This document shows, piece by piece, positions 1 through 22,916 of a DNA stretch of 64,000 bases (the first letter of the stretch is position 1; every line of letters begins with the position of its first letter). Source of the DNA: Ignavibacteriae bacterium HGW-Ignavibacteriae-1 (GTDB lineage Bacteria; Bacteroidota; Ignavibacteria; Kapaibacteriales; UBA2268). The stretch lies in the NCBI GenBank assembly GCA_002839825.1, contig PGYU01000013.1:1-64000 (forward strand), read 5' to 3'. The position numbers and the translations under genes are program-made. Below the pieces are notes generated by a model. The model saw only the letters and a list, made by a program, of their open reading frames with translations. It had not been told where the DNA came from and ran no database searches.

Positions 1-403
1 TAAACAGTTCGCCACGCTCATTCCAAATCAATTGAGTGGGTACGCCGTCCCATTTTTTGAAATTTTTCAATCTCCAATTTCTGATAGCGCCGCCCTTGCT
101 TGATATTTGAGCAACTAACAAATCATTTTCGATAGTTATAAATTGCTCTGAACCTTCGGAAAATGATGCAAAAGCATTGCCGTATTGCTTAACGGATGCA
201 AGTGAATCATCAAGTGGGATTTGTCCGAGAGTATCAAGCTGTGCGATTGGAGGCAAATCCTCTTCAATAATATTTTGCTCAACTTGAGTGGTATCTGCTT
301 TGGGTTTCTTGGGGGGCTCTTCATAATTTGCTTGTTGCCATAATGTCCAACCAACAACAACAATAAACATCATTACAAAGCCTAAAATCGTATTCCTATC
401 CAT
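1..403 (-). CDS. yidC: YidC membrane protein insertase, N-terminal part (truncated by window edge)
   Basis: Reverse-strand reading from ATG at 403: [35 protein letters not shown]...; typical YidC N-terminal TM helix plus linker; context yidD-rnpA-rpmH. Confidence 0.88.
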
Positions 404-671
404 GATTTCTTTGATTTGAATTTACAACAGTATGATTATGATCGCATCTTTCGGGAACAGGGTCAAAACCACCCCGATGCAATGGGTGGCATTTAGAAAT
501 GCGTTTGATTGATAGCCAGCTACCGCGTAGTATGCCCCAAGTTTCGACCGATTCAATGGTATATTGTGAGCAAGTTGGGTAGAATCTGCACGAAGGGGGC
601 AACATTGGCGATATAAATTTTTTGTAAAATTTAATCGGCAATATGATGATATATTTTAAATAGTCGCCCAA
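396..671 (-). CDS. yidD: YidD membrane protein insertion efficiency factor
   Basis: [28 protein letters not shown]...[14 protein letters not shown] signature; overlaps yidC start by 8 nt. Confidence 0.95.
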
Positions 672-1082
672 TTAAGTTCCTTTCGGTACATTTTGTATAA
701 TTTTATTCAGTAGTTGATGAACTCTTGGTTCAATGTCTTTAAGTCTAATCATCGAACTCGAATCAGCTTTTTGTCGCCAGCTAATCGTCAAATATTTCAG
801 TCCTGTGGGACTATGATTCGAGAAGAAGCTTCTGACACTGACTCGCAATAGTCTCTTGACTCTATTTCGCACAACAGCCTTCTTGCAGATTTTTTTTGAG
901 ACGCTTACACCGACGTAACTGTATTCGTTACTATCGTCCTCGCGAATTTTGAAATCTTCAAACTTAGATAAACTGTAGATTACAACTGCCATTATATCAC
1001 GTTCAACAAACTTTTTGCCCTTGCCGAAAACTCTATTAAAGGCATTGAAGCCTTTGAGTGGCTTTATTTTATAGTCGGACAT
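672..1082 (-). CDS. rnpA: Ribonuclease P protein component
   Basis: FNRVFGKGKKF..., SVSKKICKKAVVRNRVKRLLR signature; gene order rpmH-rnpA-yidD-yidC. Confidence 0.95.
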   Translation of the reverse strand: MSDYKIKPLKGFNAFNRVFGKGKKFVERDIMAVVIYSLSKFEDFKIREDDSNEYSYVGVSVSKKICKKAVVRNRVKRLLRVSVRSFFSNHSPTGLKYLTISWRQKADSSSMIRLKDIEPRVHQLLNKIIQNVPKGT

Positions 1083-1186
1083 TCTGGCAAACCGAAATAG
1101 TAATCAAAAAATAAGGCTCTACTCAAAATCGCAGCAATTAAGCTACAGTTTTAAGAAAAGCCCCACTAAAGTCCGTCGGCTTAATG

Positions 1187-1330
1187 CTATTCATCGCTGA
1201 CGGTAAGTCTCAAACGTCCTTTTGCACGACGGCGAGCCAATACCTTTCTGCCATTCTTAGTTGCCATACGCGCTCTGAAGCCGTGCTTATTGGCACGTTT
1301 ACGTCTGCTCGGTTGATAAGTTCTTTTCAT
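1187..1330 (-). CDS. rpmH: 50S ribosomal protein L34 (absent from ORF track because short)
   Basis: Reverse-strand 47 aa: [47 protein letters not shown]. Confidence 0.97.
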
Positions 1331-1381
1331 CTTAATACCTGGATAAAATAAAAAATTTTTTCGTTTACAAATTTAGAACTA

Positions 1382-1389
1382 CAAAGATA
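1382..1389 (-). promoter_or_regulatory. Putative Bacteroidota-type -7 element (TATCTTTG) upstream of rpmH operon
   Basis: TAnnTTTG match on minus strand ~52 nt upstream of rpmH start; no convincing -33 element. Confidence 0.4.
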
Positions 1390-1536
1390 ACAAATATTTC
1401 AGAAACCAACACTAAGAATTTGAAATGTTTAGAAAATTCATTGTTTTATGACGAATATCTTTGATTATTACAGTAATTTTTTATATTTTGGAAGTCTGAA
1501 TTTAAAACATCTTTTTCATTTTGTGGGAGATTTAGC

Positions 1537-2211
1537 ATGAATAAAGTAATTTGCACTTTGACTCTCTTGGTAGTTATGACTTCTTTTTCGATGGCTCAAC
1601 GTTACGGCGACGACGGTTATAACTTTAAACGTAATGACCCAATGGGTGCAGGGCTGTATTTGGGGTATAAAATGGGCGTAAACGCTGCCAAAGTGCCAAA
1701 CGGTATCGAAAACGGTTTGGGTTTAGCAAAAATGATTGACATTGGTTTAGAAGGCTATCTTCCGTTCGACCCGGCTTCACGCATGGGGTTGTTGTTCCAA
1801 TTAGCTTATGCTAACTACCCATACGAAACATCCGATGTAGCCGGAGGCGACCCAAGGGAAAACAACTTTACTAATATTGACCTCGGTGTGCAGTTTTTTA
1901 TAAGTGGTTTTACAGTTGGTGTAATCGCCGGTTTTCCTGCCGGTGGTACACTTGATGTCGGTGACCAATCTTATGATATTAATTCTGATGGTTTGGCAAC
2001 TTTGTTCTCGCTTGCACTTGGTGGGCATTTTAACCTTTTAAAAACTGACATGGGGCGAATGATTCTAAAAATTCAGGGGACTTATGCTGTTACAGGGCAA
2101 TTAGCGTCAGATTACAATGCGGACAACACAAGCTTCAACTACCATCCCGCATCTTTGATGTTTGGATTGGGTTGGATATTTGATTTAGAAAACAAGAAAG
2201 GTCCAAGATAA
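1537..2211 (+). CDS. Predicted outer-membrane beta-barrel protein
   Basis: Signal peptide (…TSFSMAQ), alternating aromatic/Gly-rich strands. Confidence 0.7.
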   Translation: MNKVICTLTLLVVMTSFSMAQRYGDDGYNFKRNDPMGAGLYLGYKMGVNAAKVPNGIENGLGLAKMIDIGLEGYLPFDPASRMGLLFQLAYANYPYETSDVAGGDPRENNFTNIDLGVQFFISGFTVGVIAGFPAGGTLDVGDQSYDINSDGLATLFSLALGGHFNLLKTDMGRMILKIQGTYAVTGQLASDYNADNTSFNYHPASLMFGLGWIFDLENKKGPR

Positions 2212-2226
2212 TTGAAGAGAGCTTAA

Positions 2227-2853
2227 ATGGAAAATTTATTCGAGGGTGCACTTAAATTCAGGAGCGAAGACTTTGAATCTCATCGCTCATTGTTCGAATC
2301 CTTAGGGAAGTTGCAGCAGCCGCACACCTTGTTCATAGGTTGTTCGGATTCTCGCTTAGTACCAAATTTGATTACACGTTCCCAGCCCGGTGAACTATTC
2401 ATCGTGCGGAATATCGCCAATATAGTGCCGATGTACAGGCAATCGGAAGAATATTTAGCTACTACATCGGCAATTGAATTTGCTATTCAAGCATTGGAAA
2501 TCAAAAAAATTGTAGTTTGTGGTCATTCCAATTGTGGTGGTTGCGCTGCACTTTACTATCCTGTCGAAAAATTAGCTAAGACACCACATACAGCCAAATG
2601 GCTCGAACTTGCTCATCCGGTAAAAACTGAAGTTTTGGCTTTGATGGGAGACAGTGTGGATGAATCAGCGCGTGAATGGATGACCGAGCAACTCAATATA
2701 GTGCTTCAACTCAAGCACTTAATGACATACCCATTTGTCGAGTCGGGTGTCAAATCCGGCGAAATCACAATACACGGTTGGCATTATATCATCCAAACAG
2801 GAGAGGTTTTTAATTATAATTTCGACCAGAAAGTTTTTGAACTCATAGCTTGA
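2227..2853 (+). CDS. Beta-class carbonic anhydrase
   Basis: FIGCSDSRLVPN ... VVCGHSNCGGC zinc-binding motifs. Confidence 0.95.
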   Translation: MENLFEGALKFRSEDFESHRSLFESLGKLQQPHTLFIGCSDSRLVPNLITRSQPGELFIVRNIANIVPMYRQSEEYLATTSAIEFAIQALEIKKIVVCGHSNCGGCAALYYPVEKLAKTPHTAKWLELAHPVKTEVLALMGDSVDESAREWMTEQLNIVLQLKHLMTYPFVESGVKSGEITIHGWHYIIQTGEVFNYNFDQKVFELIA

Positions 2854-2924
2854 GGGACTTTTAAGTTTCACTGCGAATTACTAATTACAAAATGCTTTTG
2901 ATGTTTAATAAAATTGAGGTGAAT

Positions 2925-3302
2925 ATGGATACTCCGAACTCTGTAACTGATGCAACATTTTTATTCAGACGTGATATTATCAAGAAGATGAATTCCGACA
3001 TGCGTTTTGTAGGAATCTTTTACATAATTTATGGTGCCATCACCTGCATAGGAATTATCACAGCTGTAATTGGTGTGCCTTATATCAAAATGGGAATGAG
3101 GCTCAGGGAATCTGCCGACAGTTTTGACAGATATACAGCGTTAGGCGATGACATGGATTTGAATATGGCTTTGGAGAAGCAACAGCGTTTTTATTTCATC
3201 AATAAAATCATGATTATTATCGCCCTTGCTTTCGTAGCCTTATATATAATATTTATTATCGTCCTTCTCAGCTTTATGGATTTCTCAAGTCTTATGGCTT
3301 AA
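2925..3302 (+). CDS. Small membrane protein (two TM segments), unknown function
   Basis: Probable start MDTPNS at 2925 preceded by GAGGTG; two hydrophobic helices. Confidence 0.6.
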   Translation: MDTPNSVTDATFLFRRDIIKKMNSDMRFVGIFYIIYGAITCIGIITAVIGVPYIKMGMRLRESADSFDRYTALGDDMDLNMALEKQQRFYFINKIMIIIALAFVALYIIFIIVLLSFMDFSSLMA

Positions 3303-3322
3303 AATACGAATTTGTAAATACG

Positions 3323-3359
3323 AAAAAGGCTGACTTGAGTTATCAAGTCAGCCTTTTTG
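3323..3359. terminator. Bidirectional rho-independent terminator
   Basis: AAAAAGGCTGACTTGAgttaTCAAGTCAGCCTTTTT. Confidence 0.85.
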
Positions 3360-3438
3360 TATGTCTTAAGTCGAAGTGATTATTTCAAAATCATCAATGG
3401 CATACGAGTTACTTTGCCGTTGATTTTTCCAATTACAT
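3324..3438. repeat. Direct repeat copy A flanking the cytochrome/barrel cassette
   Basis: ~115 bp, about 9 mismatches by hand alignment to 7179-7293. Confidence 0.9.
3376..3438 (-). pseudogene. Remnant of a T9SS protein C-terminus (VIGKINGKVTRMPLMILK*), orphaned
   Basis: Minus-strand translation matches the last 18 residues of the 7235-9400 protein, with no upstream coding remnant. Confidence 0.8.
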
Positions 3439-3566
3439 TTGTAAATTTAGAATGAATTTTGTTATCAAAATTGTCAAACGAGATACTTAGAAATTTGTTA
3501 AAAAAAAAATTATGAAAATAGTTATACATATAAATAAATTATGTGTACTACATGAGAATTATTTAT

Positions 3567-3574
3567 TATCTTTG
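3567..3574 (+). promoter_or_regulatory. Putative -7 element (TATCTTTG) upstream of decaheme cytochrome gene
   Basis: TAnnTTTG match ~80 nt upstream of ATG 3653; -33 element not obvious. Confidence 0.35.
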
Positions 3575-3652
3575 CTTTTAAAATTGTTAAAAATCGTTAG
3601 GGTTTTCGTTCTTATTATTAAATTATTATAAATTAATGTGAGGTAACTGCAT

Positions 3653-4579
3653 ATGAAAAAAATGTTGATTACAGTATTTATATTACTTTTATTAGGAATA
3701 ACGGTACTAATCAGTACTTCTAATAAAAGTAAATTCGGCACTTCTGCAAAAGAAGTGAATTGGGTTGAACTCAATAGTGGGTTCAAAGAGGCGACCTTTG
3801 TTAAGGATAAGAATGTTTGTTTGTCATGCCATGAAGAATCCGCAAACAAATATAAACATACATCACATAGTCGCGCTTTTGAATTTAGTAAGGAAGGAAC
3901 TCTGGAGTCAAAAGACTGCGAATCCTGCCATGGTCCTAGAAGTAAACATATAGAAGACCCGGATGGAAGCCTTACTTTTACTGAAGAACAGTATTCAAAA
4001 GTTTGTATGCAGTGCCATCAGGATAACAGTCGAATGTACTGGAGCGGAAGTATTCATAAGTCATCTGATGTAAATTGCGTAACCTGCCATTCGGTTATGG
4101 AACAAAAGAGTGATGAATTTTTACTCAGCAAGAACAGTCAGACTGAAGTATGCTCTGAATGTCATACCGATGTTAAAGCAAAAATGAACAAGACTTCTCA
4201 TCATCCGGTAAAAGAAGGACTGATGGATTGTTCTTCTTGTCATAATGCTCATGGAGCTCCCGGGACAGGTATGTTAGTTAAAGGTACTATAAATGAAACC
4301 TGTTATACTTGTCATCAAGACAAAAGAGGACCTTTCACATGGGAACATGCCCCTGTACGCGAAGATTGTTCAAATTGCCACGAGCCACATGGTTCGAATA
4401 ACAGAAATCTATTAACAACACAAAATGCATCATTATGTGTTAGTTGTCATCAGTATGGCGGTCATATCAATCAGTATCGATACAATCGCGTAAGCACTCC
4501 TTACGGAAATGGTTGTGTGAACTGCCATATGACTGTTCATGGTTCAAATCATCCATCAGGTGCTAAATTTACAAGATAA
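3653..4579 (+). CDS. Decaheme c-type cytochrome, MtrA/DmsE-like
   Basis: Ten CXXCH motifs (CLSCH, CESCH, CMQCH, CVTCH, CSECH, CSSCH, CYTCH, CSNCH, CVSCH, CVNCH); N-terminal signal/anchor; barrel gene immediately downstream. Confidence 0.93.
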   Translation: MKKMLITVFILLLLGITVLISTSNKSKFGTSAKEVNWVELNSGFKEATFVKDKNVCLSCHEESANKYKHTSHSRAFEFSKEGTLESKDCESCHGPRSKHIEDPDGSLTFTEEQYSKVCMQCHQDNSRMYWSGSIHKSSDVNCVTCHSVMEQKSDEFLLSKNSQTEVCSECHTDVKAKMNKTSHHPVKEGLMDCSSCHNAHGAPGTGMLVKGTINETCYTCHQDKRGPFTWEHAPVREDCSNCHEPHGSNNRNLLTTQNASLCVSCHQYGGHINQYRYNRVSTPYGNGCVNCHMTVHGSNHPSGAKFTR

Positions 4580-4592
4580 TAAGGAATAAAAA

Positions 4593-7136
4593 ATGAATAC
4601 AAATAACACTTGTATATTAATAATAATTATTTTATTAATATCATTAGTTTCTGCTAAAAGTCAGGAATCGCTTCAATTTAACGGTCAAATAACTCCGGGA
4701 ATAGGTTGGATAGACCTAAATACAAATTCCAGTAAATTTTATGAATACAGAGATATGAAAGAAGGGTTTTATATACCCGGCGTTCAACTGAATGCTATTC
4801 AGCCGAACAGTGGTTTTTATCTTCAGTTTGGTGGCAAAAGATTACTTTGGGACGACCAGGTAATCCGTCTTAATCTTGGTGATTACACAAGTTTCTGGAA
4901 TATATCCATTGACCATAAAAAGACACCAAACCGCTTAAGTAACAAGGCTATGACACCATATTCTTATCGTGGAGACGGTGTTTTTAATTCTGCAGGATAT
5001 GTTGGCATCATCAAAGATACCATTGATGCAAATGGAACCGTATCATTAGTACCTACGAAAGCACAAATGCATGTTAATGATTCGCTCGTAGCACAATTTC
5101 TTGAGAAAAACTTATTGCCTATAGATTTGGGAACTCAACGTAATAATACTTCTGTTACATTAAATTTGATGCAAACTGAAGAATTAAAATATAGTCTGAC
5201 TTATATGCACGAAACAAAAACAGGTAAAAGAAATAATTATGGCACACTCGGAGACAGACCGCCGAGAACATTAAACGTTCAATTACCTGAACCGGTTGAT
5301 TACACAGTAAGTGAAGTTCTCGCTAATGCTGAATATCAGACGAATGGATTTCAGGCAAGATTCAACTACACTTTGTCCAGTTTTTCAAATCAGTTGGATT
5401 TTCTGAGATGGGATAATATATTCTTTACTCCGGATACTCCAAACGACTATATTACAACTGTTGCAGGCACACCGCGTAATGCTTCACTTGTTGGTCAGAG
5501 AGCTTTGGCACCGGATAATATTTCGCATTATTTTACCCTTGCTACATCAATTATTTTGCCCTTTGAAAGCCGACTTACTGCTACAGGTTCTATTGGAATG
5601 ATGAGTCAAAATGAAAACTTACTTCCTTATAGTTATAGCGATCTTGGAGGCGATAGAAATGCTGCTAATGGTGATTCACTTAATTGGAATGACCCGAATA
5701 AATTGCCAATTAACACTGCTAGTGCTAAAATTAATACAATGAGGCTTGATTTCGAGTATTTGATTAATCCTTTTAATGCTCTGAATCTCAAAGCTTATGC
5801 ACGTTATTATAAATTAGATAATCAAACACCTATAAATCAGTGGCGATATGTTACTCAGGACGTTGCGACCACCGACGGCGATGTTTCTTATGTAAATTAC
5901 AGAAGAAATTTAGCTCATGGTTTTGATAATATGAAATTCGGTATAGACTTGAGATATTATCTTAATTTTTGGAGAACCTCTATTGGTCTTGGTGCTGTTA
6001 GGGAGAATATTAACAGGGAATATCGTGAAGCCAATACAGGCGAGAATATAATCAATGCATCTTTGAGAACACGCCCCATGAAGTGGCTTTCATTATCTGC
6101 AGGATACTTAATGGGTGACCGCCAGATTGACGAATATAATTATATGGTTACTAGTCAGAGCTATTGGTATTCATTTGAAAGAGGAGCTAATCAGGTTGAT
6201 AACCCACAGTTCCTATTTGCGAACCATCCTGATTTAAGAAAATATGATGTTTCGGATAGAAAAAGAAATAAAATGAATGTTTCTGCAAATCTGAATTTAT
6301 TGGATGACTTGGATTTATCGGCTTCATTTACTAACAAATCAGACGATTTCGATTCGCAGGTTACTCCGGTTGCACCATTTGCAAATACGCTTGTGCCGCT
6401 CCCGAACCCTGAAGATAAAAATGCTATGACACCCGGTAAACAACTTGGACTACTTAAAGACAACCGTCAAAATATATCAATTAATTTACAATATGTAGCG
6501 TCAGAGTGGCTTACTTTATCTATGTATGCTGACCAAGAAAATGCAAAATATGATATTCGCGGTATGGTTTATAATGAAAACTTAAGAAATCAACCTAGTA
6601 GCCAATCAAGTTCGCAACCAACACAATTAGGACCGTGGAACGATCCAAACAGATTATATATGTCGAACACAGAAGAAATCACAAATTCTATCGGACTTGG
6701 TGTTATGATTGAAGTCATTCCCGGAAAATTAAGATTCTCTACAGATGCTAATGTTTCTATGGCAACTGTTGATATGATATATTCCGGTTATGGCTCTGAT
6801 CCTTCATATTTGGGTAGAGATTGGGAGACTTTTGATTTCGGTTTCAACAGCCCGGGGAAAGCAGAATTTAATCAATACGTTGTAAATGCATCTGTTGAAT
6901 ATAAAGTATTCAACAATTTAACCTGTGGTTTGCATTTTATGTTCAATCAATATGAAATTACAGACTGGATTCAGGAACCTTCCGGAGCATGGGTAGAATT
7001 TGTCGAAAGTGAGAATTTCCTGCGTGATACATCACGAGATAATCGTTGGGGTAATCGCTTGGTTTCTTTGGGTAGTTACCTTGCACCAGGTTATACCGCT
7101 AATGCAGTATTTTTAAATATTACCTATATGTTCTAA
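4593..7136 (+). CDS. MtrB/PioB-like decaheme-associated outer-membrane beta-barrel
   Basis: 847 aa, signal peptide (LISLVSAKSQ), many alternating beta strands, C-terminal ...FLNITYMF; 13 nt after decaheme cytochrome. Confidence 0.85.
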   Translation: MNTNNTCILIIIILLISLVSAKSQESLQFNGQITPGIGWIDLNTNSSKFYEYRDMKEGFYIPGVQLNAIQPNSGFYLQFGGKRLLWDDQVIRLNLGDYTSFWNISIDHKKTPNRLSNKAMTPYSYRGDGVFNSAGYVGIIKDTIDANGTVSLVPTKAQMHVNDSLVAQFLEKNLLPIDLGTQRNNTSVTLNLMQTEELKYSLTYMHETKTGKRNNYGTLGDRPPRTLNVQLPEPVDYTVSEVLANAEYQTNGFQARFNYTLSSFSNQLDFLRWDNIFFTPDTPNDYITTVAGTPRNASLVGQRALAPDNISHYFTLATSIILPFESRLTATGSIGMMSQNENLLPYSYSDLGGDRNAANGDSLNWNDPNKLPINTASAKINTMRLDFEYLINPFNALNLKAYARYYKLDNQTPINQWRYVTQDVATTDGDVSYVNYRRNLAHGFDNMKFGIDLRYYLNFWRTSIGLGAVRENINREYREANTGENIINASLRTRPMKWLSLSAGYLMGDRQIDEYNYMVTSQSYWYSFERGANQVDNPQFLFANHPDLRKYDVSDRKRNKMNVSANLNLLDDLDLSASFTNKSDDFDSQVTPVAPFANTLVPLPNPEDKNAMTPGKQLGLLKDNRQNISINLQYVASEWLTLSMYADQENAKYDIRGMVYNENLRNQPSSQSSSQPTQLGPWNDPNRLYMSNTEEITNSIGLGVMIEVIPGKLRFSTDANVSMATVDMIYSGYGSDPSYLGRDWETFDFGFNSPGKAEFNQYVVNASVEYKVFNNLTCGLHFMFNQYEITDWIQEPSGAWVEFVESENFLRDTSRDNRWGNRLVSLGSYLAPGYTANAVFLNITYMF

Positions 7137-7178
7137 TCTTACAGATTTGAGATAATTGCAAATAGGAATTTTTCAAAG

Positions 7179-7213
7179 AAAAGGCTGACTCGATTACTCA
7201 AGTCAGCCTTTTT
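7179..7213. terminator. Rho-independent terminator between convergent genes
   Basis: AAAAGGCTGACT...AGTCAGCCTTTTT stem with T tract. Confidence 0.75.
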
Positions 7214-7293
7214 GTATGTTTAAAGTCGATGTGATTATTTCAAAATCATCAATGGCATACGTGTTACTTTTCCGTTGATTTTTCCAATTACAT
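7179..7293. repeat. Direct repeat copy B flanking the cytochrome/barrel cassette
   Basis: Matches 3324-3438; includes the real 3' end of the 7235-9400 gene. Confidence 0.9.
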
Positions 7294-9400
7294 AATAAAT
7301 ACCTGAAGCAACTTCAGCGCCTTCAAATGAAGCATGGAATTCACCTTCATTCACGAAACCTTGGAATAATTGCTTAACAATCTTACCTTGCGAATCTATA
7401 ACCATCAAATCAAGCCAACCGGCTTTGCCAACATTATAGGTCAAGCGTGTGTTTCCTTCTACCGGATTCGGCGAAGCTTTGATTGATAGTTCAGCATTCC
7501 CGGAAGCGCCGGGCTCTACGGTTGCCGGGTCGTAACCTGCTCCCATAAATGGAATAGTTGCGTTGCCGTTTACCGGGTCGTTAGATACAATCTTCAAACT
7601 AGCAATGTAATTCTTTGCAAGCAGTGGTGTAAATCTGATTTTCATTTCATGTACATTACCCGGTTCCAAAGTCGGAACAACTTCTGAACCGTCAATAATT
7701 TTGAATTGAGCTTTGTTTTCTGGGTCACCATCCCATTTAGTCTGGAAAATATTTAAATTGTTTTGACCTGAATTTGTGATGTACAATGATTCATCTGCAT
7801 CAGAACCCATTGCAACGGGACCGAAATCAAATTCATCTGTTGAAAATGAAATACCGGAAGTTGCATCTCTCGGGGCGCCCTTCGCTTTGACAATGATAGT
7901 TGCCTTTCCTTGGTTATTCAAACCATTTGAAGTGACTTCTATTCTGCCTTCGTAAGATCCGCCTAATTCATTTGAAGGTGTAAATTTAACCTTTATATAT
8001 TGAGTGGTGCCGGCTTGGACTGTTATCGGTACTTTTACGGTTTCCGTCCATGTAAAATGTCCGTCACCGTCATCCTCGATTTTAAGGGTTTCTATTACCA
8101 AAGCAATATTGCCGGTATTGGTAATAGCTAAATTTCTCGAAAGTGACGAGCCGTATGGTATTGTACCGTAGTCAACAGGTAAGTCGGAAACTTGAATTTT
8201 GGGCCCATGAAAGACTTGGTCGCCACCTTCGCCATATAGGTCAATAGTGATATTGCCATTGATAGCATCAGAAAAGATGTCAAGACTTTCACTATAAGCG
8301 CGAGGTTCGGTAGGTGAGAATTTCAAGTTGATATAATGAACGTCAAGTGGTTCCAATATTACTTGTCCGCCACCTTCTGTAATAAAGAATGCATCTGGGT
8401 CAACAAAATTCGCAATTTCAGATTTTGTAATAGTAAGTTTTTGGCGTCCATAATTTTGGACAGCTGCGGCAAGAAAGCCGTGTTGGTTTGGTTCGATTTT
8501 GCCGAAATCATAGCTGGCATTTTCTGCAACGATTTTTTGTTCGGGATGTGGTTGGTCTTGAACGCACCAATAAATTCCGTTAATCAAAGCAACGTTGAAG
8601 TGCCATGTGTGCCATGTATTTGCAATGTCAAAATTAACAGACCACAAAGCGCAACGTGCTTTTCCATTTTCACGTCTGACACCTGTAAAAACTGAATCTT
8701 CCACGGGGTTACCCGCAAATTCAGTAACTCTGTCGAATTGTCTTGCCTCAGATCCTTCTTTAATATTGAAAACGTCCACACTTGGGTACCATCTCATCGG
8801 GTCTCTGAAACCGCCATTGTTATGATTATAGCTCATATTGCAGGCTTTATCGAATCCGGCTGAGACCGGGTCGCCTTCGTAGCCCCAAATTTTAAATCCG
8901 TGGAATGTGCCGCTTTGAAGTAATTGTAGTCTTCCGAGATAGTTAATTCCCAAAAAATCTTCTAAGAATTTACGTGATTGAATATCACCACCGGATTTGA
9001 ATGCTTCGTATAATACAGCATTACCGATGATAAGAACTCCTTTTTGAGCGTCGAGCATTTGTTTGATTTTTGTCAATACCTTGATTCCGTCAACCGATGC
9101 ATCAAGCCCTTTGGTAACTCCCATTGGGAAAACTGCCACATCGTATTCTGTGATGTCTTTTTCTGCAAAAGTCGCTGCACCGAAGGGACGCTTAACAATA
9201 TACTTACGCAAGCCGACATCTTCAGTCAACTTATCCCAATAGCAAAGGTCAAATAGGTTAGTAATCTCAACATCTCCAGCCATTTGGTCTTCGAAATTGG
9301 TGAAAACGATGTAATACTTTTCGTCAGCTGATTGTGAATAGCCGACAGAGACAGAAAAAATCAGCGACAAAAAAACGAAAATTCTAAAAAAACGTGTCAT
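7235..9400 (-). CDS. Secreted choice-of-anchor-D/Ig-like protein with T9SS C-terminal sorting domain
   Basis: Signal peptide; repeated ~110-aa Ig-like modules (…SFSTDEFDFGPVAMGSDADESLYITNSG…); C-terminal KASPNPVEGNTRLTYNV...GIYYVIGKINGKVTRMPLMILK. Confidence 0.85.
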   Translation of the reverse strand: MTRFFRIFVFLSLIFSVSVGYSQSADEKYYIVFTNFEDQMAGDVEITNLFDLCYWDKLTEDVGLRKYIVKRPFGAATFAEKDITEYDVAVFPMGVTKGLDASVDGIKVLTKIKQMLDAQKGVLIIGNAVLYEAFKSGGDIQSRKFLEDFLGINYLGRLQLLQSGTFHGFKIWGYEGDPVSAGFDKACNMSYNHNNGGFRDPMRWYPSVDVFNIKEGSEARQFDRVTEFAGNPVEDSVFTGVRRENGKARCALWSVNFDIANTWHTWHFNVALINGIYWCVQDQPHPEQKIVAENASYDFGKIEPNQHGFLAAAVQNYGRQKLTITKSEIANFVDPDAFFITEGGGQVILEPLDVHYINLKFSPTEPRAYSESLDIFSDAINGNITIDLYGEGGDQVFHGPKIQVSDLPVDYGTIPYGSSLSRNLAITNTGNIALVIETLKIEDDGDGHFTWTETVKVPITVQAGTTQYIKVKFTPSNELGGSYEGRIEVTSNGLNNQGKATIIVKAKGAPRDATSGISFSTDEFDFGPVAMGSDADESLYITNSGQNNLNIFQTKWDGDPENKAQFKIIDGSEVVPTLEPGNVHEMKIRFTPLLAKNYIASLKIVSNDPVNGNATIPFMGAGYDPATVEPGASGNAELSIKASPNPVEGNTRLTYNVGKAGWLDLMVIDSQGKIVKQLFQGFVNEGEFHASFEGAEVASGIYYVIGKINGKVTRMPLMILK

Positions 9401-9446
9401 TTTAGATAACTCCTTAAATTATTTAAAGTAAATTTCATATTTAAAA

Positions 9447-9476
9447 ACAGCCGAAAGTTCAACACTTCCGGCTGTA
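9447..9476 (-). terminator. Stem-loop terminator downstream of the Omp28-like gene
   Basis: ACAGCCGaAAGTtcaacACTTcCGGCTGT with flanking A/T runs. Confidence 0.65.
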
Positions 9477-9500
9477 AAAATAAGCAAAAAAGAACAAAAA

Positions 9501-12056
9501 TTACTTAACGACAACAACGGACATTTGTGTTGTAACGCCGTTGATTTCAGCCATAATATAATATGTTCCGGAAGTTAGGTTACCTGCATTAATCTCGGCA
9601 TTGAAAGTGCCGGGTGCGAGGCTTTCTTTTACTATTTGTTGGATTGTTCTGCCACTTGCATCAATCATTTTGATATTGATGAATTGAGCAGCCGCTCCGT
9701 TGATTGTATAATTAAACGTTGAAACAGTATTGACAGGATTTGGTTCTACGCTCATCGAGAAAAGTCCGTCAACTGACACAACTTCGTCAACTGAAGAAGG
9801 ATTGAAACCAACACCTTCCAAAGTAATTGTTGCATTTGGAGTATTCGGGTCATTTGATTGTATTTTCAAATTTGCTGTGTAATTTGCAGTAGTTTCAACA
9901 TTGTCAGGAGAGAATTTAACTTCGATAATACGTGTTCCGCCTTCACCTAAAGATGCTAAACTGCCACCTTCGGTAATAGTGAAAGTGCCTTCAGCATTAT
10001 TCTCTAATTCAATTTTTGTGAAAGTCAATGGAGCATTACCTACATTTCTGAGTGTAAATGATTTAGTTTCGAATTCGCCCTTGTTCACAGTACCAAAATC
10101 AAGTTCTTGAGTGCTCAAAGTCATAGCAGGTGCTGTACCAGATGGTTCGCCAAACAACCAATCCATGATTTCGGTTGCAAGTTTTGATTTAATTTGGTCA
10201 TCCGCAGCTTCGAAGTTGAAACTTAGATAAACAATACGCGAACTACCGACTTGTGATTTAACGCCGGCAATTCCGCCGGTCTGAGTATAATTCAAGATTG
10301 GGGTAGCAGATCCGCTTGCTGTTAAATTTTCCGCAAAATATAATCTTTTGTTTGCAGCAGTTCCGGCACTTTTGTTAACTGAGAAATTCAAGCCATCACC
10401 GATTGGGTCACCACTAACACCTTGTACATCAGCATATAAATAACCTGTGATTTGACCTTGTGAGTTTGTTTGAACTAATTGCAAAGGATTTCCTGCATAG
10501 CCAATACCAAGAGTATTGCCAAAAAATGCTTTTGCATCTGCGGAACCATCAGTTGTATTGAAAGTAATATGCATATCAAGTTCGGAAGAAAGTAAGATTT
10601 TCTTACCGGCATTTACTGCACTTTTCAAATAGTTACGAATCAATGTTGCTTCTGCCCAATTTGTAGAGAAAAGTCCGCGAGTATTATAAGAAGACGTAAT
10701 ATGAATAAACTCAAAATTTCCGGCTTGGTATGCATTCAAAGCAGCATCAATTTTGCTGGTTGGCAATGGCATATAAACAATCTTTTGTCCATAATCCGCA
10801 TTCATCGCCAATGCTGATTTGAATAACTCTGAGTTTGGATTCAATCCAAATATAATATGCTTTGTATTATCAGTTAAAATATTGAATTCTGTATTTGTAG
10901 CCATTACTTTTAAGCCGTTCTTAGATACAGGCATTGCTTTTACATTAAAAGTAGCAAAATCAGGTTTGCCTGCAGGAGCATTAAGATTTACCAAAACTTC
11001 AGTATTACCTTTTGCAGGAAGAATAACCTTTGTCTTGCTTAAAGTTGGAGCCCAATTGCTTGGATAATTTGATTCAGTTGCATCTATAGAAAGGTCAACT
11101 TCAATTTCAAAATCTTGTGGATTGCTTACCACAATAGTGTGTGAAAAATCTTGACCTAATGTCATCATTGTGTATTCAAGGTCTGTTTCAAGTTTTGCAA
11201 AAGCAGGCATAACTTTGCCGACTTCGATTGCATTTACAATTGAACCATCAGTCAAAGATGTACCATTTACAACAAATGCTTGCACTAAACCAACAACATA
11301 CAAATCTTGTGGTTTCCAATCAGCAGCTTTTTTGAAACTAAATGTTTGAGAGTATGTTTCACCGGCTTTGACGCTCTTTTGAAATTTTTGTATATCACCA
11401 TAAGCACCGCCAAAAGCATGACGAACGACAGACATGTGTTCGTAGCCAACTATAACTGAGGGTTGTTTGTAGTATGGATTGTTTTCAAATCCCGGACGGT
11501 TTGATAAATAATTTTGTTGATTCCACTGATTGTTGTTAGGACCGGAGACTCTATCTTCCATTATATATACATTGAAAGCAAATTGACGTGGGTCATTTGT
11601 TAGCACTTCAGCTGTAATAGTAGCTGTAATCATTTCTGTAGTTGCATTGTAAGAATATTCTACATCCAACTCAAATATTGGAGGAGCGTTAAGTCTTGCT
11701 ATTGCTGCGCCTCTCCAAGCACCACGGTCTAAAGCCATTGCACCGCTATAAACTGTACGGTCAACGAGACCTTGCGGGTAACCGGTAATACCGAAAGATT
11801 GAGCTAATTGTCCTTGCAATGGCGATAAAGTCATAGCATCACCATTATGCCATTTCACTCCGATGATTTGGTCAGGGAATTCTTTCAAAACTTCGGAAAC
11901 TCTGTATGAACCATCCGGACACCAACCGCACCAAGCACCTGTATGTTGTTCGATAAGGACTCTTTTTTGTGCCTCGAGAGGCGTAGTAGCCGCAAACAAT
12001 ACGACTAAGCTGAGAATTGATAGCATTCTCAATACTTTTGTAAAACGTGTACTCAT
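9501..12056 (-). CDS. Omp28-related secreted protein with thioredoxin-like N-terminus, Ig-like domain and T9SS sorting domain
   Basis: VLIEQHTGAWCGWCPDGSYRV... (CGWC); C-terminal VEPNPVNTVSTFNYTI...LTSGTYYIMAEINGVTTQMSVVVVK. Confidence 0.85.
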   Translation of the reverse strand: MSTRFTKVLRMLSILSLVVLFAATTPLEAQKRVLIEQHTGAWCGWCPDGSYRVSEVLKEFPDQIIGVKWHNGDAMTLSPLQGQLAQSFGITGYPQGLVDRTVYSGAMALDRGAWRGAAIARLNAPPIFELDVEYSYNATTEMITATITAEVLTNDPRQFAFNVYIMEDRVSGPNNNQWNQQNYLSNRPGFENNPYYKQPSVIVGYEHMSVVRHAFGGAYGDIQKFQKSVKAGETYSQTFSFKKAADWKPQDLYVVGLVQAFVVNGTSLTDGSIVNAIEVGKVMPAFAKLETDLEYTMMTLGQDFSHTIVVSNPQDFEIEVDLSIDATESNYPSNWAPTLSKTKVILPAKGNTEVLVNLNAPAGKPDFATFNVKAMPVSKNGLKVMATNTEFNILTDNTKHIIFGLNPNSELFKSALAMNADYGQKIVYMPLPTSKIDAALNAYQAGNFEFIHITSSYNTRGLFSTNWAEATLIRNYLKSAVNAGKKILLSSELDMHITFNTTDGSADAKAFFGNTLGIGYAGNPLQLVQTNSQGQITGYLYADVQGVSGDPIGDGLNFSVNKSAGTAANKRLYFAENLTASGSATPILNYTQTGGIAGVKSQVGSSRIVYLSFNFEAADDQIKSKLATEIMDWLFGEPSGTAPAMTLSTQELDFGTVNKGEFETKSFTLRNVGNAPLTFTKIELENNAEGTFTITEGGSLASLGEGGTRIIEVKFSPDNVETTANYTANLKIQSNDPNTPNATITLEGVGFNPSSVDEVVSVDGLFSMSVEPNPVNTVSTFNYTINGAAAQFINIKMIDASGRTIQQIVKESLAPGTFNAEINAGNLTSGTYYIMAEINGVTTQMSVVVVK

Positions 12057-12393
12057 AATATCTCCTAAAAATTTATTTTTATTATAACACTTTATTGTGT
12101 ACTAACTTGCTTAGTAATACTATAACAATTTCAAATACTAAAAAGTTACAAATACTTTGAAAAATGTCTAAAAAATTAACAATTCTTTAAAACTTCCAAT
12201 CCTAATTTATAAAATTAAAAAAAAAATCAATATCAACAATATAAATTTCAAAAAAAGATAAACTATTTTGAAAATATTTCTTATATAGACTTCGCCTACT
12301 TAGAAAACTAACACTTAAGTTCACAAAAAGTTTCAATTTGATACACTTTTTTTCTCCAAAATTATTTATCTTGCAAGTTAGCAAAAATTTGTG

Positions 12394-12401
12394 TATTTTT
12401 G
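12394..12401 (+). promoter_or_regulatory. Putative -7 element (TATTTTTG) of tRNA-His promoter
   Basis: TAnnTTTG 10 nt upstream of tRNA; TTG at 12371-12373 with ~20-nt spacing. Confidence 0.5.
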
Positions 12402-12410
12402 TAATTCTAT

Positions 12411-12484
12411 GGCGGCTGTAGCTCAGCAGGTAGAGTGCCAGATTGTGGCTCTGGTTGTCGCGGGTTCGAGCCCCGTCAGTCGCC
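12411..12484 (+). tRNA. tRNA-His (GTG)
   Basis: Cloverleaf read by hand: encoded G-1 opposite C73, acceptor GCGGCTG/CAGTCGC, anticodon stem-loop CCAGA TTGTGGC TCTGG, T arm GCGGG TTCGAGC CCCGT. Confidence 0.95.
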
Positions 12485-12593
12485 CTTCAACTGCTTTAAT
12501 TTACGGGTCTGTCTCATAAAGCAGTGTAGTTTTCTTAAATATTGTACCCCAGCTATATATTTACTAATTGCTACCAGAAAAAAATAAATCTCA

Positions 12594-18433: not shown

Positions 18434-18449
18434 GATTAACACGGAAAAT

Positions 18450-19157
18450 GAGTTATTAAGTCTGAACAACACAACTTGTTCCGAAATTGAATCTGTTGTT
18501 GATGAAATTGCCGAAGCTGCATTATCAAAAGAAGAAAAATCAAACCACCAAACTAAAAAAAAAGCCCTTCGACGAGAGAAAATCAAAGCGATATTTCGGA
18601 AATAAGTGAAATATATAACAGAATTTCGCCATCTGTTCAAAAATCAAACAACATGTTGGTTAAAAATCAAACGCTTACGGATATTCTAAAACACCAATAC
18701 AAGAATTTGCACGTGTTAAAATTAAGCGCTATTCCACGTAGGATAATGCAGTTAGCCACGACTCAGGCTTCAGAGGGGAATTCATCAGCCAAATTGGTGA
18801 TGCATCCTAAATCGCTCGGCACGAAAGTTGTACAAATGAAATAGTGATGAATGTTGTCAAGTTGCAATTGACCGGTGAAAAAAGGGGAGCTCGTAGGCGG
18901 TAGAATCAACGATTGGAATGGTGGAAGTGAGATTACATAGCAAGGGACCGGAACTCGACAACGTGGAATACAAATTGAAATATATGAATGAGCAAGCTAA
19001 TTCGGGCAGACACAATCAAACGGAAAAGGTCAAAAACAGATTTAACGTACTTACAATAATGGAAAATCATCAGAAAGCAGCGGCAGAAACGACAAATTGG
19101 GATGATAACAAGATTTTACGACACGATAACGGTACAATAGTTGAAACATATATCTAA
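18450..19157 (+). pseudogene. Probable degraded fliK-like (flagellar hook-length control) gene
   Basis: Fragments in shifting frames: ...NSSAKLVMHPKSLGTKVVQMK* then IVMNVVKLQLTGEK in another frame; resembles a FliK C-terminal domain; directly upstream of flgD. Confidence 0.5.
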
Positions 19158-19178: not shown

Positions 19179-19868
19179 ATGATTAATGAAATATCCGGTG
19201 CAAGCACCGGTTCGAATTCGGTAAAGAAGACGATTAGGAAAAAGCAATCTGCATTAGGACGCGATGAGTATATGAAGTTGCTCACATTTCAAATGCAAGC
19301 GAAAAACCCATTGAAAGCATATGACAATCAGGAATTTGCAGCACAATTGGTGCAATTTTCTCAACTCGAACAATTAATAGACATACGCTCATTACTCGAA
19401 GAACAAATGCTAAGCAATGCGATTTTGACACAAACGATGTCTAATTCTGCATTGCCCGGTATGCTCGGTAAAACAGCTAAAGCTTTTACAAATCAAGTTC
19501 AAGTGAGTGGTGTCAATGACAACATTCTTGGCTTTGAAACACCTTTCAATGTGTCTTACGGCAAGATGACGATTACCGATTCACAAGGTGTCATCGTTAA
19601 AGTTATCAAATTGACCGGCAATATGTTGAATAAAGGCTCACGAATAATTAATTGGGACGGCACAAATTTTAACGGTGATAAAGTGCCGGACGCAGACTAT
19701 AAATTTACAGTAGAACTCTTTGAATCAAACGGTAATGGTTTTTCTGCCGAGACATTCACTAAAGGTAAGATTGACGCCGTAAAATTCAAGAGCGACGGTA
19801 CTAAACTTGTTATCAATGGAATGGAATTGCCTTTGAATGCTATTTCGGATATCACAACAGACAATTAA
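19179..19868 (+). CDS. flgD: Flagellar hook assembly protein FlgD
   Basis: GRDEYMKLLTFQMQAKNPLKAYDNQEFAAQLVQFSQLEQL N-terminal motif; FlgD Ig/Tudor-like C-terminal half; AGGAGG at 19168-19173. Confidence 0.9.
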   Translation: MINEISGASTGSNSVKKTIRKKQSALGRDEYMKLLTFQMQAKNPLKAYDNQEFAAQLVQFSQLEQLIDIRSLLEEQMLSNAILTQTMSNSALPGMLGKTAKAFTNQVQVSGVNDNILGFETPFNVSYGKMTITDSQGVIVKVIKLTGNMLNKGSRIINWDGTNFNGDKVPDADYKFTVELFESNGNGFSAETFTKGKIDAVKFKSDGTKLVINGMELPLNAISDITTDN

Positions 19869-20491: not shown

Positions 20492-20686
20492 AGAATCTCC
20501 CCAAAATTATTTTAACAACATTCATTCTATCAAATACAAATTAAAGTTAAACTTTTGATATATCCAAGTTCTATTTGAAAATTTGTTAAGATTTTTCCAG
20601 CTTAGTCAAAAGAATTTGTTATTCTTTAATATTTTCTTATTTTTACTTTATGAAATTCATTAACATTGTAATTTTAGCAACATTTT

Positions 20687-21232
20687 ATGAAGAAACATTT
20701 CGTAATTATCGTATTATTGGCAATCACATTTATTTCAATCAATGATGCAAATGCCCAAAACAGTTTATTTGGTGTAGATTTGGGTTTGGCTCTTCCTGCC
20801 GGAGGTTTAAACGCCGGAACGGGTTTTGGCATCGAAGCAAAAGGAATTATTCCGATGAAAAAACATCCGTACATCGCTTTCGGAATAGGTGTGGGTTATT
20901 ATTGGTGGGGTGAGAAAAAAATCTCCGGATATGACAACAGTCGAAGCAATATACCAATATCGGCAACCTTGATGTTGTTTGTTTCACAGAACCCAATCCG
21001 GTTATATTTTGGTTCAGACTTTTCGATGAACTTCATGTCTATTACATCTGAATCATGGTTTAGTGGTGTCAAAGGATCCAGAACTGACCAACACTTTGGC
21101 TTTGCTCCACTTTTTGGTATAATTGCACCTATCGGTGACAACACTAATATCATAGGCACTATGAAGTACAATCTTATCTTAATAGACGAAACTTTTAACT
21201 TCCTTTCTTTGCGCGTTGGCTTAACGTTTTAG
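20687..21232 (+). CDS. Small outer-membrane beta-barrel protein
   Basis: Signal peptide (ISINDANAQ); beta-barrel pattern ending ...LRVGLTF. Confidence 0.65.
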   Translation: MKKHFVIIVLLAITFISINDANAQNSLFGVDLGLALPAGGLNAGTGFGIEAKGIIPMKKHPYIAFGIGVGYYWWGEKKISGYDNSRSNIPISATLMLFVSQNPIRLYFGSDFSMNFMSITSESWFSGVKGSRTDQHFGFAPLFGIIAPIGDNTNIIGTMKYNLILIDETFNFLSLRVGLTF

Positions 21233-21305
21233 TTAGATGGAATCTCGCGGTGGGTGTAGATATTAATAATTGTGAATAATTTAACCATTTAGATATAGGT
21301 GTAAT

Positions 21306-22076
21306 ATGCTTAGAGTTTTAAAAAATCTTTTAAAGTTTTTATTAGCCACATTGATTTTGATTAGTTGTTCTTCATCAAATTTTTATTACCAACTTTACGA
21401 AATTGACTCAAATGACCTGAAAATTTCACAAGAAAAAGTAGAGTATGAAAATTCTGATGTCATGTTAACATTTGATTTTTGGGCGCAGAATGGTAAATCT
21501 AACATACAGATTTACAACAAGACTGATTATGATGTCATAATTGACTTAGAGCATTCACATCTCATTGTTAATAATTTAGCTGTACCTTATTATGAGGAAC
21601 GTGTGCATTCTTATAGTGATACAAAATCAGAAGAAAAAACAGAAAATACTTCTAAAGGTTCTGCTGTTTCTTCCGAGTATATGTCAACATCTACAGTAGA
21701 AATACCTGCAACCAAAAAGATTATTATTCCCCCAAAGTCATTTAAGATGATAAATGGCTTAGAACTTAATAATCAGCTTAACATGAATTGCAATTTAATT
21801 AGGTATCCAAGTCGAAGGGAGATTAATACTCAATATTTCCAAGAGGCACATTCGCCATATGTTTATCGTAATATTTTAACATATAGTCTTATGGAATCAG
21901 TGCCTGTCACAAAAAAAGTTGAAAATAGGTTTTGGGTCTCATCTATAACGAATTATCCGATAAATGAATTTATTGGTTGGAGAAAATCAATCATTTGCGA
22001 AACAGAATATTCATCATTAGTTTTCAAGCATCACCTTTCAAGAAGATTTTATATTGAGTATTTAAGAACATACTAA
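21306..22076 (+). CDS. Putative lipoprotein, unknown function
   Basis: Lipobox-like LILISCSSS near N-terminus; full-length ORF without overlap. Confidence 0.6.
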   Translation: MLRVLKNLLKFLLATLILISCSSSNFYYQLYEIDSNDLKISQEKVEYENSDVMLTFDFWAQNGKSNIQIYNKTDYDVIIDLEHSHLIVNNLAVPYYEERVHSYSDTKSEEKTENTSKGSAVSSEYMSTSTVEIPATKKIIIPPKSFKMINGLELNNQLNMNCNLIRYPSRREINTQYFQEAHSPYVYRNILTYSLMESVPVTKKVENRFWVSSITNYPINEFIGWRKSIICETEYSSLVFKHHLSRRFYIEYLRTY

Positions 22077-22091
22077 GTTTATACAAAAAAT

Positions 22092-22916
22092 CTAATCATT
22101 TACGGCTTTCTTCAAATGCAAATCCATCTGCGGAAACGGAATAGTCAGCCCTTTCTTAGGGAAAGTGTTGTAAACTTTCTCGTGCATATCGAAATAAATA
22201 TTCCAATAATCTTCACTTTTGCACCACACTCTTACAGTGAAATCAACTGAACTATTATTGAGCTTCGATAAAGCAATCAATGGTTCGGGTTCAGGCAGAA
22301 CTCGGTCATCTTCGGCAATTAGGCTCTGAAGAGTCTCGCGTGCTACTTCGGCGCTATCACCGTACGAAATCGAAAAGAGCATATCCACTCTGCGTTCAGT
22401 CTCGTGAGTGAAATTTATCAGTGATGAATTAGCCAAATTTCCGTTCGGCAAAAAGACTACGCGATTATCGAATGTTTTTAATAATGTGTTGAAAATCTGG
22501 ATTTCGTAAACTGTACCGATATATCCCTGAGTTTCGATTACATCGCCTACCCTGAATGGTTTGAACATGAGTATCATTACACCACCGGAAAAATTCTGCA
22601 ATGTGCCGGATAGCGACATCCCAATAGCCAAACCCGCTGCACCCAACAATGCTATAAACGAGGTCATCTCAAATCCGAGCATGGATGCAACTGAAATAAT
22701 CAACAAGACTCTGAGCAAGATATTTAATAATGTTCGCAGAAATGGACGCAAAGACGGGTCAATATGCTTTGCTTCTAAAATTCTGCCTAATGCTTTGCCC
22801 ACAAATTTTATGAGCCACAATCCAATAATTAAAGTCGGAATAGCGACGAGTAATTTCAACCCGTAGATTACTGCAATTTCTGATAAATAATTGACTAAAC
22901 TGTTAATGTTGTCCAT
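22092..22916 (-). CDS. Small-conductance mechanosensitive channel (MscS family)
   Basis: GAAGLAIGMSLSGTLQNFSGGVMILMFKPFRVGDVIE pore/beta domain motif. Confidence 0.95.
   Translation of the reverse strand: MDNINSLVNYLSEIAVIYGLKLLVAIPTLIIGLWLIKFVGKALGRILEAKHIDPSLRPFLRTLLNILLRVLLIISVASMLGFEMTSFIALLGAAGLAIGMSLSGTLQNFSGGVMILMFKPFRVGDVIETQGYIGTVYEIQIFNTLLKTFDNRVVFLPNGNLANSSLINFTHETERRVDMLFSISYGDSAEVARETLQSLIAEDDRVLPEPEPLIALSKLNNSSVDFTVRVWCKSEDYWNIYFDMHEKVYNTFPKKGLTIPFPQMDLHLKKAVND

What the first reader, a model, noticed from the sequence alone, without database searches (positions are those of the whole stretch)
3324..7293. MtrA/MtrB-like electron conduit cassette bracketed by ~115-bp direct repeats carrying the neighbouring gene's 3' end
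The decaheme cytochrome and barrel genes (3653-7136) lie between two near-identical segments (3324-3438 and 7179-7293, ~9 mismatches by hand). Each contains the same terminator and the 3' codons of the adjacent T9SS gene. The left copy is an orphan tail. This fits insertion of the two-gene cassette at the boundary between the 2925-3302 gene and the T9SS gene with duplication of the junction, i.e. acquisition as a unit. No transposase or integrase is visible.
Basis: partly seen in the sequence, partly recalled or inferred. Interest (0 to 1): 0.75.

Follow-up and report, generated by a model that had tools for sequence, protein, structure and literature searches.

The report
Electron-conduit gene pair inserted at gene end
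A two-gene outer-membrane electron conduit was inserted as one piece between two neighbouring genes of an Ignavibacteria-class bacterium, leaving a duplicated copy of the neighbour's 3' end on its far side, and two sister species still have the uninterrupted site with a single copy.

Summary
Segments 3324-3438 and 7179-7293 match at 106 of 115 positions; with gaps the match extends to 3302-3438 / 7160-7293 (90%). Two congeners (G001, G002) carry the same locus with no cassette and exactly one copy of the segment. The MtrB barrel is found in 1 of 60 sampled relatives, the window's own genome. The insert is about 3.7 kb: a promoter region, a DmsE/MtrA-type decaheme cytochrome and an MtrB/PioB barrel. 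The duplicated unit is the whole intergenic terminator plus the last 59 nt of the T9SS gene. New here: two related cassettes in other Ignavibacteria families show the same kind of mark. In G501 a 60-nt repeat of the pdxH 3' end lies on both sides. In G310 a 60-nt exact copy of the tRNA-Lys 3' end lies on the one side visible. Restored gene end plus displaced copy is the signature of Campbell-type integration of a circular element at a gene 3' end. It resembles an integrase-less cis-mobilizable element (CIME), not a transposon. G000 carries only two tyrosine recombinases, both shared with its congeners, so the enzyme, or RecA in its place, is inferred. Horizontal mobility of mtr genes was already known; this is a variant with a clean scar.

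The parts
2925..3302 (+). Left host neighbour, DUF5362-family membrane protein
   Evidence: PF17319, 92 bits; orthologue at the same place in G002 (82% aa) and G001 (77% aa)
3302..3438 (.). Left repeat copy: intergenic terminator plus orphan 59-nt tail of the T9SS gene (115-nt ungapped core 3324-3438)
   Evidence: single copy in G001 and G002
3323..3362 (.). Terminator-like hairpin, left copy (GGCTGACTTGA/TCAAGTCAGCC, T run on the + strand)
   Evidence: read from sequence; inverted match to the right copy
3439..3652 (+). AT-rich (19% GC) leader of the insert; contains TATCTTTG (3567-3574), similar to a Bacteroidota -7 element
   Evidence: GC; promoter element is inference from sequence
3653..4579 (+). 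DmsE/MtrA-type decaheme c-type cytochrome, 308 aa
   Evidence: TIGR03508 244.6 bits over cut-off 192.2; best PDB hit chain 6r2q_A, 1.6e-64
4593..7136 (+). MtrB/PioB-family outer-membrane barrel, 847 aa
   Evidence: PF11854 269.8 bits; profile hits PDB 6r2q_B, 3e-16; TIGR03509 below its cut-off
7160..7293 (.). Right repeat copy: intergenic terminator plus the true 3' end of the T9SS gene (115-nt ungapped core 7179-7293)
7235..9400 (-). Right host neighbour, choice-of-anchor-D protein with T9SS C-terminal sorting domain (721 aa)
   Evidence: NF012200; TIGR04183 21.1 bits, just below its cut-off of 23; orthologues 90% and 88% identical in G002 and G001

Best explanation
A circular DNA carrying the two-gene MtrA/MtrB-like unit and a copy of the [T9SS gene 3' end + terminator] segment integrated by one reciprocal crossover into that same segment of the host chromosome. 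Integration gives a copy at each end: one completes the T9SS gene and the other is left as an orphan tail beyond the insert. Shown: the insertion, its boundaries, the duplication, the single-copy empty site in two congeners, and displaced gene 3' ends beside two other cassettes of the same type. Inferred: the circular intermediate and the crossover. The crossover was either site-specific (attL/attR of an integrase-less, CIME-like remnant acted on in trans or by a since-lost integrase) or RecA-mediated through the roughly 135-nt homology. The cargo should work as a trans-outer-membrane electron conduit, with the decaheme cytochrome threaded through the barrel, feeding or drawing on unidentified extracellular partners.
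For: Empty site with one repeat copy in both congeners. Barrel in 1 of 60 relatives. The two copies share 5 informative sites against G001+G002, versus 1 and 2 for the alternative splits, so they are each other's closest relatives. The orphan tail has no private change and both tail differences are synonymous, as if both copies had diverged while still coding, in separate genomes, before being joined. Same architecture in G501: pdxH 3' end, 60 nt, 90%, E 1e-17, on both sides of the cassette. In G310 a 60-nt exact copy of the tRNA-Lys 3' end lies about 660 nt from the cassette. In 183 random flank pairs none had such a repeat. Integration at tRNA or protein-gene 3' ends with a restored gene, and decay to CIMEs, is documented (PMC5704250; PMC4383910).
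Against: No integrase in or near the cassette. Genome-wide only two tyrosine recombinases, both with orthologues in G001/G002, and no serine resolvase. The repeat is longer and less identical than typical att repeats (8-60 bp, PMC5704250). The three repeat sequences share no obvious common site. Three other cassettes of the same clade (L081, L082, L083) show no comparable flanking duplication. The copy-divergence argument rests on few sites.
Confidence: 0.6

Rival explanations
1. Illegitimate insertion: a staggered break in the host segment was filled in and sealed around a linear foreign fragment (or a replication template switch copied it), duplicating about 135 nt of host DNA.
For: Explains a long duplication with no recombinase and no common target motif; copies are sisters within the G000 lineage.
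Against: Does not predict that the repeats are gene 3' ends in three independent cassettes. Predicts that the orphan tail drifts neutrally; none of its 59 nt has a private change where about 3-4.6 are expected (P about 0.01-0.05).
Confidence: 0.2
2. The terminator/tail segment was first tandemly duplicated in the host and the cassette later entered between the copies by some other route.
For: Short tandem duplications are common (general knowledge); nothing in the sequence excludes it, and the copies are sisters.
Against: Needs two events, and insertion exactly between the copies; no congener shows a tandem duplication.
Confidence: 0.1
3. The cassette with its repeats is ancestral to the genus, and G001 and G002 each lost it by recombination between the repeats.
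For: Recombination between direct repeats would regenerate a perfect empty site with one copy, as seen.
Against: Needs at least two independent losses plus absence in 57 further relatives; the two G000 copies group together rather than with G001/G002, against a duplication older than the genus.
Confidence: 0.07
4. Assembly or binning artefact: the cassette contig was joined from another genome or strain.
For: The assembly has 43 contigs and read data could not be examined.
Against: Cassette and both host flanks lie on one 66.6-kb contig; copies differ at 9 sites and each joins unique flanks, so one copy cannot have been duplicated by the assembler; GC and GC3 of the cassette are close to the flanks.
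Confidence: 0.03

Closest known systems
Horizontally transferred mtrCAB clusters and their genomic scars (Baker et al. 2022, PMC8805035)
   Same: A decaheme + barrel electron conduit inserted into otherwise syntenic DNA of relatives that lack it
   Different: That work concerns MtrCAB and its text does not mention Ignavibacteria or Bacteroidetes; here there is no mtrC in the insert and the scar is a duplicated gene 3' end
CIME (cis-mobilizable element; PMC5704250, citing Pavlovic 2004 and Bellanger 2011)
   Different: CIMEs are recognised through a parent ICE/IME with the same att site; none was found here, and the repeat is longer and only 90-92% identical
Porin-cytochrome (Pcc) clusters, including Ignavibacterium album (PMC4245776)
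   Same: Two-component periplasmic multiheme cytochrome + outer-membrane barrel in the class Ignavibacteria
   Different: This pair is of the DmsE/MtrA + MtrB/PioB type, with no outer-surface cytochrome gene in the insert
MtrAB part of the Shewanella baltica MtrCAB complex (PDB 6r2q; identity of the entry from general knowledge, its depositor labels are uninformative)
   Same: Both proteins match the two chains by sequence
   Different: The barrel is about 150 aa longer and the match covers only its middle

Membership tests
MtrA/DmsE decaheme cytochrome (TIGR03508) | Score above the curated cut-off; 10 CXXCH motifs | tested here: met
   244.6 bits vs 192.2; 10 CXXCH counted in the translation
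MtrB/PioB barrel | Pfam PF11854 above gathering score | tested here: met
   269.8 vs 23 bits
MtrB/PioB barrel | NCBIfam TIGR03509 above cut-off | tested here: not met
   184.2 vs 240.05 bits: related subfamily, not TIGR03509 proper
MtrB/PioB barrel | Full trans-membrane barrel fold | tested here: inconclusive
   AlphaFold model of low confidence (mean pLDDT 41.6, 6 sequences), strand-rich only
MtrCAB complex | Outer-surface decaheme MtrC/OmcA encoded in the cluster | tested here: not met
   Only two ORFs of note in the insert
CIME / integrative element remnant | Flanking direct repeats, one restoring a gene 3' end | tested here: met
CIME / integrative element remnant | Uninterrupted attB-like site with one copy in relatives | tested here: met
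   G001 and G002
CIME / integrative element remnant | No integrase or transfer genes of its own | tested here: met
CIME / integrative element remnant | A related ICE/IME with a matching att site, or demonstrated excision or mobilisation | not testable with these tools
   None seen; excision needs PCR or reads
Transposon insertion | Short target duplication (general knowledge: about 2-15 bp), terminal inverted repeats, transposase | tested here: not met
   115-138-nt duplication; no transposase in the insert

The most novel reading that the evidence does not exclude
A family of minimal MtrAB-type elements of about 3.5-4 kb in Ignavibacteria and related Bacteroidota moves repeatedly between genomes by integrating at the 3' ends of unrelated genes (T9SS gene, pdxH, tRNA-Lys) and restoring them, without encoding a recombinase: a mobile electron-transfer module using a borrowed recombinase or homologous recombination.
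Probability: 0.2. Interest if true: 0.75.

Novelty: new variant of a known kind. Interest (0 to 1): 0.52.

Why it matters
Horizontal spread of extracellular electron transfer is usually inferred from gene trees. Here the insertion can be read to within a few bases against intact sites in sister species, and it moves a complete two-gene conduit as a unit. Recurrence of displaced gene 3' ends beside related cassettes gives a searchable signature and a testable mechanism for how a lineage acquires a trans-outer-membrane electron path in one step.

Tried and rejected
Transposition with target duplication: rejected, the repeat is too long and there is no transposase or inverted termini. Other copies of the repeat in the genome as a dispersed element: none. 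The same kind of repeat elsewhere in the window, or in about 54-63 kb of each congener: none comparable. Cassette on plasmids or viral contigs: no match. Empty site for the G501 cassette: its same-genus genome G609 gave no pdxH match and other family members do not share the synteny, so unresolved. Donor identification: nearest barrel only 57% identical and the branching within the 7-member clade is unresolved. An integrase-like ORF beside the G310 tRNA fragment was suspected by eye but no Pfam or PHROGs family supports it. The barrel structure model was too poor for a fold search. GC and GC3 do not single the cassette out as foreign.

Full report
What was checked. Allowing gaps, the match runs from the DUF5362 stop codon to 59 nt inside the T9SS gene, 3302-3438 against 7160-7293, 138 columns, 89.9%. 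The longest exact runs are 31, 22 and 22 nt; the 31-nt run spans the T9SS stop codon. The right copy is the true 3' end of the T9SS gene (7235-9400, minus strand). The left copy is an orphan that still spells the same 18 residues.

What the insert is. Between the copies lie 214 nt of very AT-rich leader (19% GC), a 308-aa decaheme cytochrome (TIGR03508, over its cut-off; best PDB match 6r2q chain A) and an 847-aa MtrB/PioB barrel (PF11854 over its cut-off, TIGR03509 below; 6r2q chain B by profile). There is no outer-surface cytochrome, transposase or integrase.

Empty site. The window lies in genome G000, contig 23. Two same-genus genomes keep the neighbourhood: carbonic anhydrase (97% and 94% aa identity), DUF5362 (82%, 77%), the T9SS gene (90%, 88%). 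In both, window 1-3438 and window 7179-12500 align to one uninterrupted stretch and overlap by 113 nt: one copy of the repeat, no cassette. A 60-genome sample of relatives holds the barrel only in G000, by protein search and by PF11854 profile. The cassette is therefore most simply a gain in the G000 lineage.

Age and relation of the copies. In a four-way alignment, 5 informative sites join the two G000 copies against G001+G002, with 1 and 2 for the alternatives, so the copies come from the same or a very near lineage. Yet in the noncoding half they differ by 15.5%, about as much as G000 from G002 (16-18%). The orphan tail has no private change in 59 nt, and both differences from the right copy are synonymous. 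At the noncoding rate about 3-4.6 private changes would be expected in the orphan (Poisson P of zero about 0.05-0.01). This mildly favours copies that diverged as coding sequence in separate genomes and were joined later, as when an incoming circle carries its own version of the gene end. The numbers are small and this is a lean, not a proof.

Relatives of the cassette. Within the class, PF11854 was above its cut-off in 17 of 391 genomes, several only marginally. Barrels of the same length class (51-57% identical, next to a decaheme gene 63-65% identical) occur in G515, G584, G501, G680 and G310 (G501's decaheme gene reads in two frames). A GTDB scan added Prolixibacteraceae (50%) and more distant ones in Deltaproteobacteria, Desulfuromonadales, Elusimicrobiota and Gemmatimonadota (33-41%). 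Named records place the class as Ignavibacteria. Trees of both genes put the window with the Ignavibacteria and Prolixibacteraceae group at full support, with unresolved branching inside. Distribution is patchy and the neighbours differ at each site, which fits transfer, but no donor is identified.

A recurring mark. Flanks of the other cassettes were searched for direct repeats. In G501 (L084) a 60-nt repeat, 90% identical, E about 1e-17, brackets the cassette: the left copy is the 3' end of pdxH (PF10590) plus the following spacer, the right copy is an orphan tail. In G310 (L072) a copy of the tRNA-Lys 3' part lies about 660 nt before the decaheme gene; a tRNA-Lys reading as intact stands on another contig of that genome, and 60 nt are identical. 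tRNA 3' ends are conserved and the G310 contig is a binned 6.6-kb piece, so that case is weaker. None of 183 random flank pairs in the window had such a repeat. Three further cassettes (L081, L082, L083) had no comparable one.

Mechanism. A restored gene end at one side and a displaced copy at the other is how tRNA- or gene-end-targeted islands look (PMC4383910; PMC5704250). [quoted passage not shown] That is the closest description of what this works like. Membership is not established, because no parental element or recombinase is known. G000 has only two tyrosine recombinases, both with orthologues in the congeners, and no serine resolvase. RecA-mediated crossover through 135 nt of homology would leave the same picture. 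Illegitimate fill-in joining remains the main rival.

Function. By family the pair is a trans-outer-membrane electron conduit. G000 carries other multiheme cytochromes elsewhere, with counterparts in the congeners by family search, but none was tied to this pair; direction of electron flow and partners are unknown.

Known or new. Horizontal spread of mtr genes with genomic scars was shown by PMC8805035, and porin-cytochrome pairs in Ignavibacteria by PMC4245776. The new elements are the base-level insertion against intact sites in sister species, the gene-end duplication, and its recurrence beside related cassettes.

Noticed in passing
L084:248-307 and L084:4541-4599: A second MtrAB-type cassette bracketed by a duplicated pdxH 3' end; a DoxX-like remnant follows its barrel, whereas in L077 (same genus) an intact DoxX-like gene follows the barrel (DoxX identified by eye).
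   Followed up: partly
L072:455-533: 60-nt exact duplicate of the tRNA-Lys 3' end next to a third MtrAB-type cassette; an unidentified ORF (3-368, minus) looks integrase-like by eye but matches no family.
   Followed up: partly
window 18434-18580: About 9.6 kb present in both congeners at this place is missing from the window; a FlgD-like ORF follows at 19179-19868 (identified by eye only).
   Followed up: no
window 20624-22100: About 1.5 kb absent from G002 and only partly matched in G001, with a 181-aa ORF (20687-21232) and a 256-aa ORF (21306-22076).
   Followed up: no
L106:694-2220 and L113:688-2220: The congeners encode an eight-heme cytochrome ending in a T9SS-like sorting tail, a possible secreted electron carrier; no such hit was listed for G000.
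   Followed up: no
L072:4734-6059 and L092:1-848: A small cytochrome-like gene plus a TauE-like exporter sit beside the cassette in both an Ignavibacteria and a Prolixibacteraceae contig, suggesting a larger unit shared across classes.
   Followed up: no
L081:8875-8944: Fluoride riboswitch near the end of the cassette contig (Rfam RF01734).
   Followed up: no
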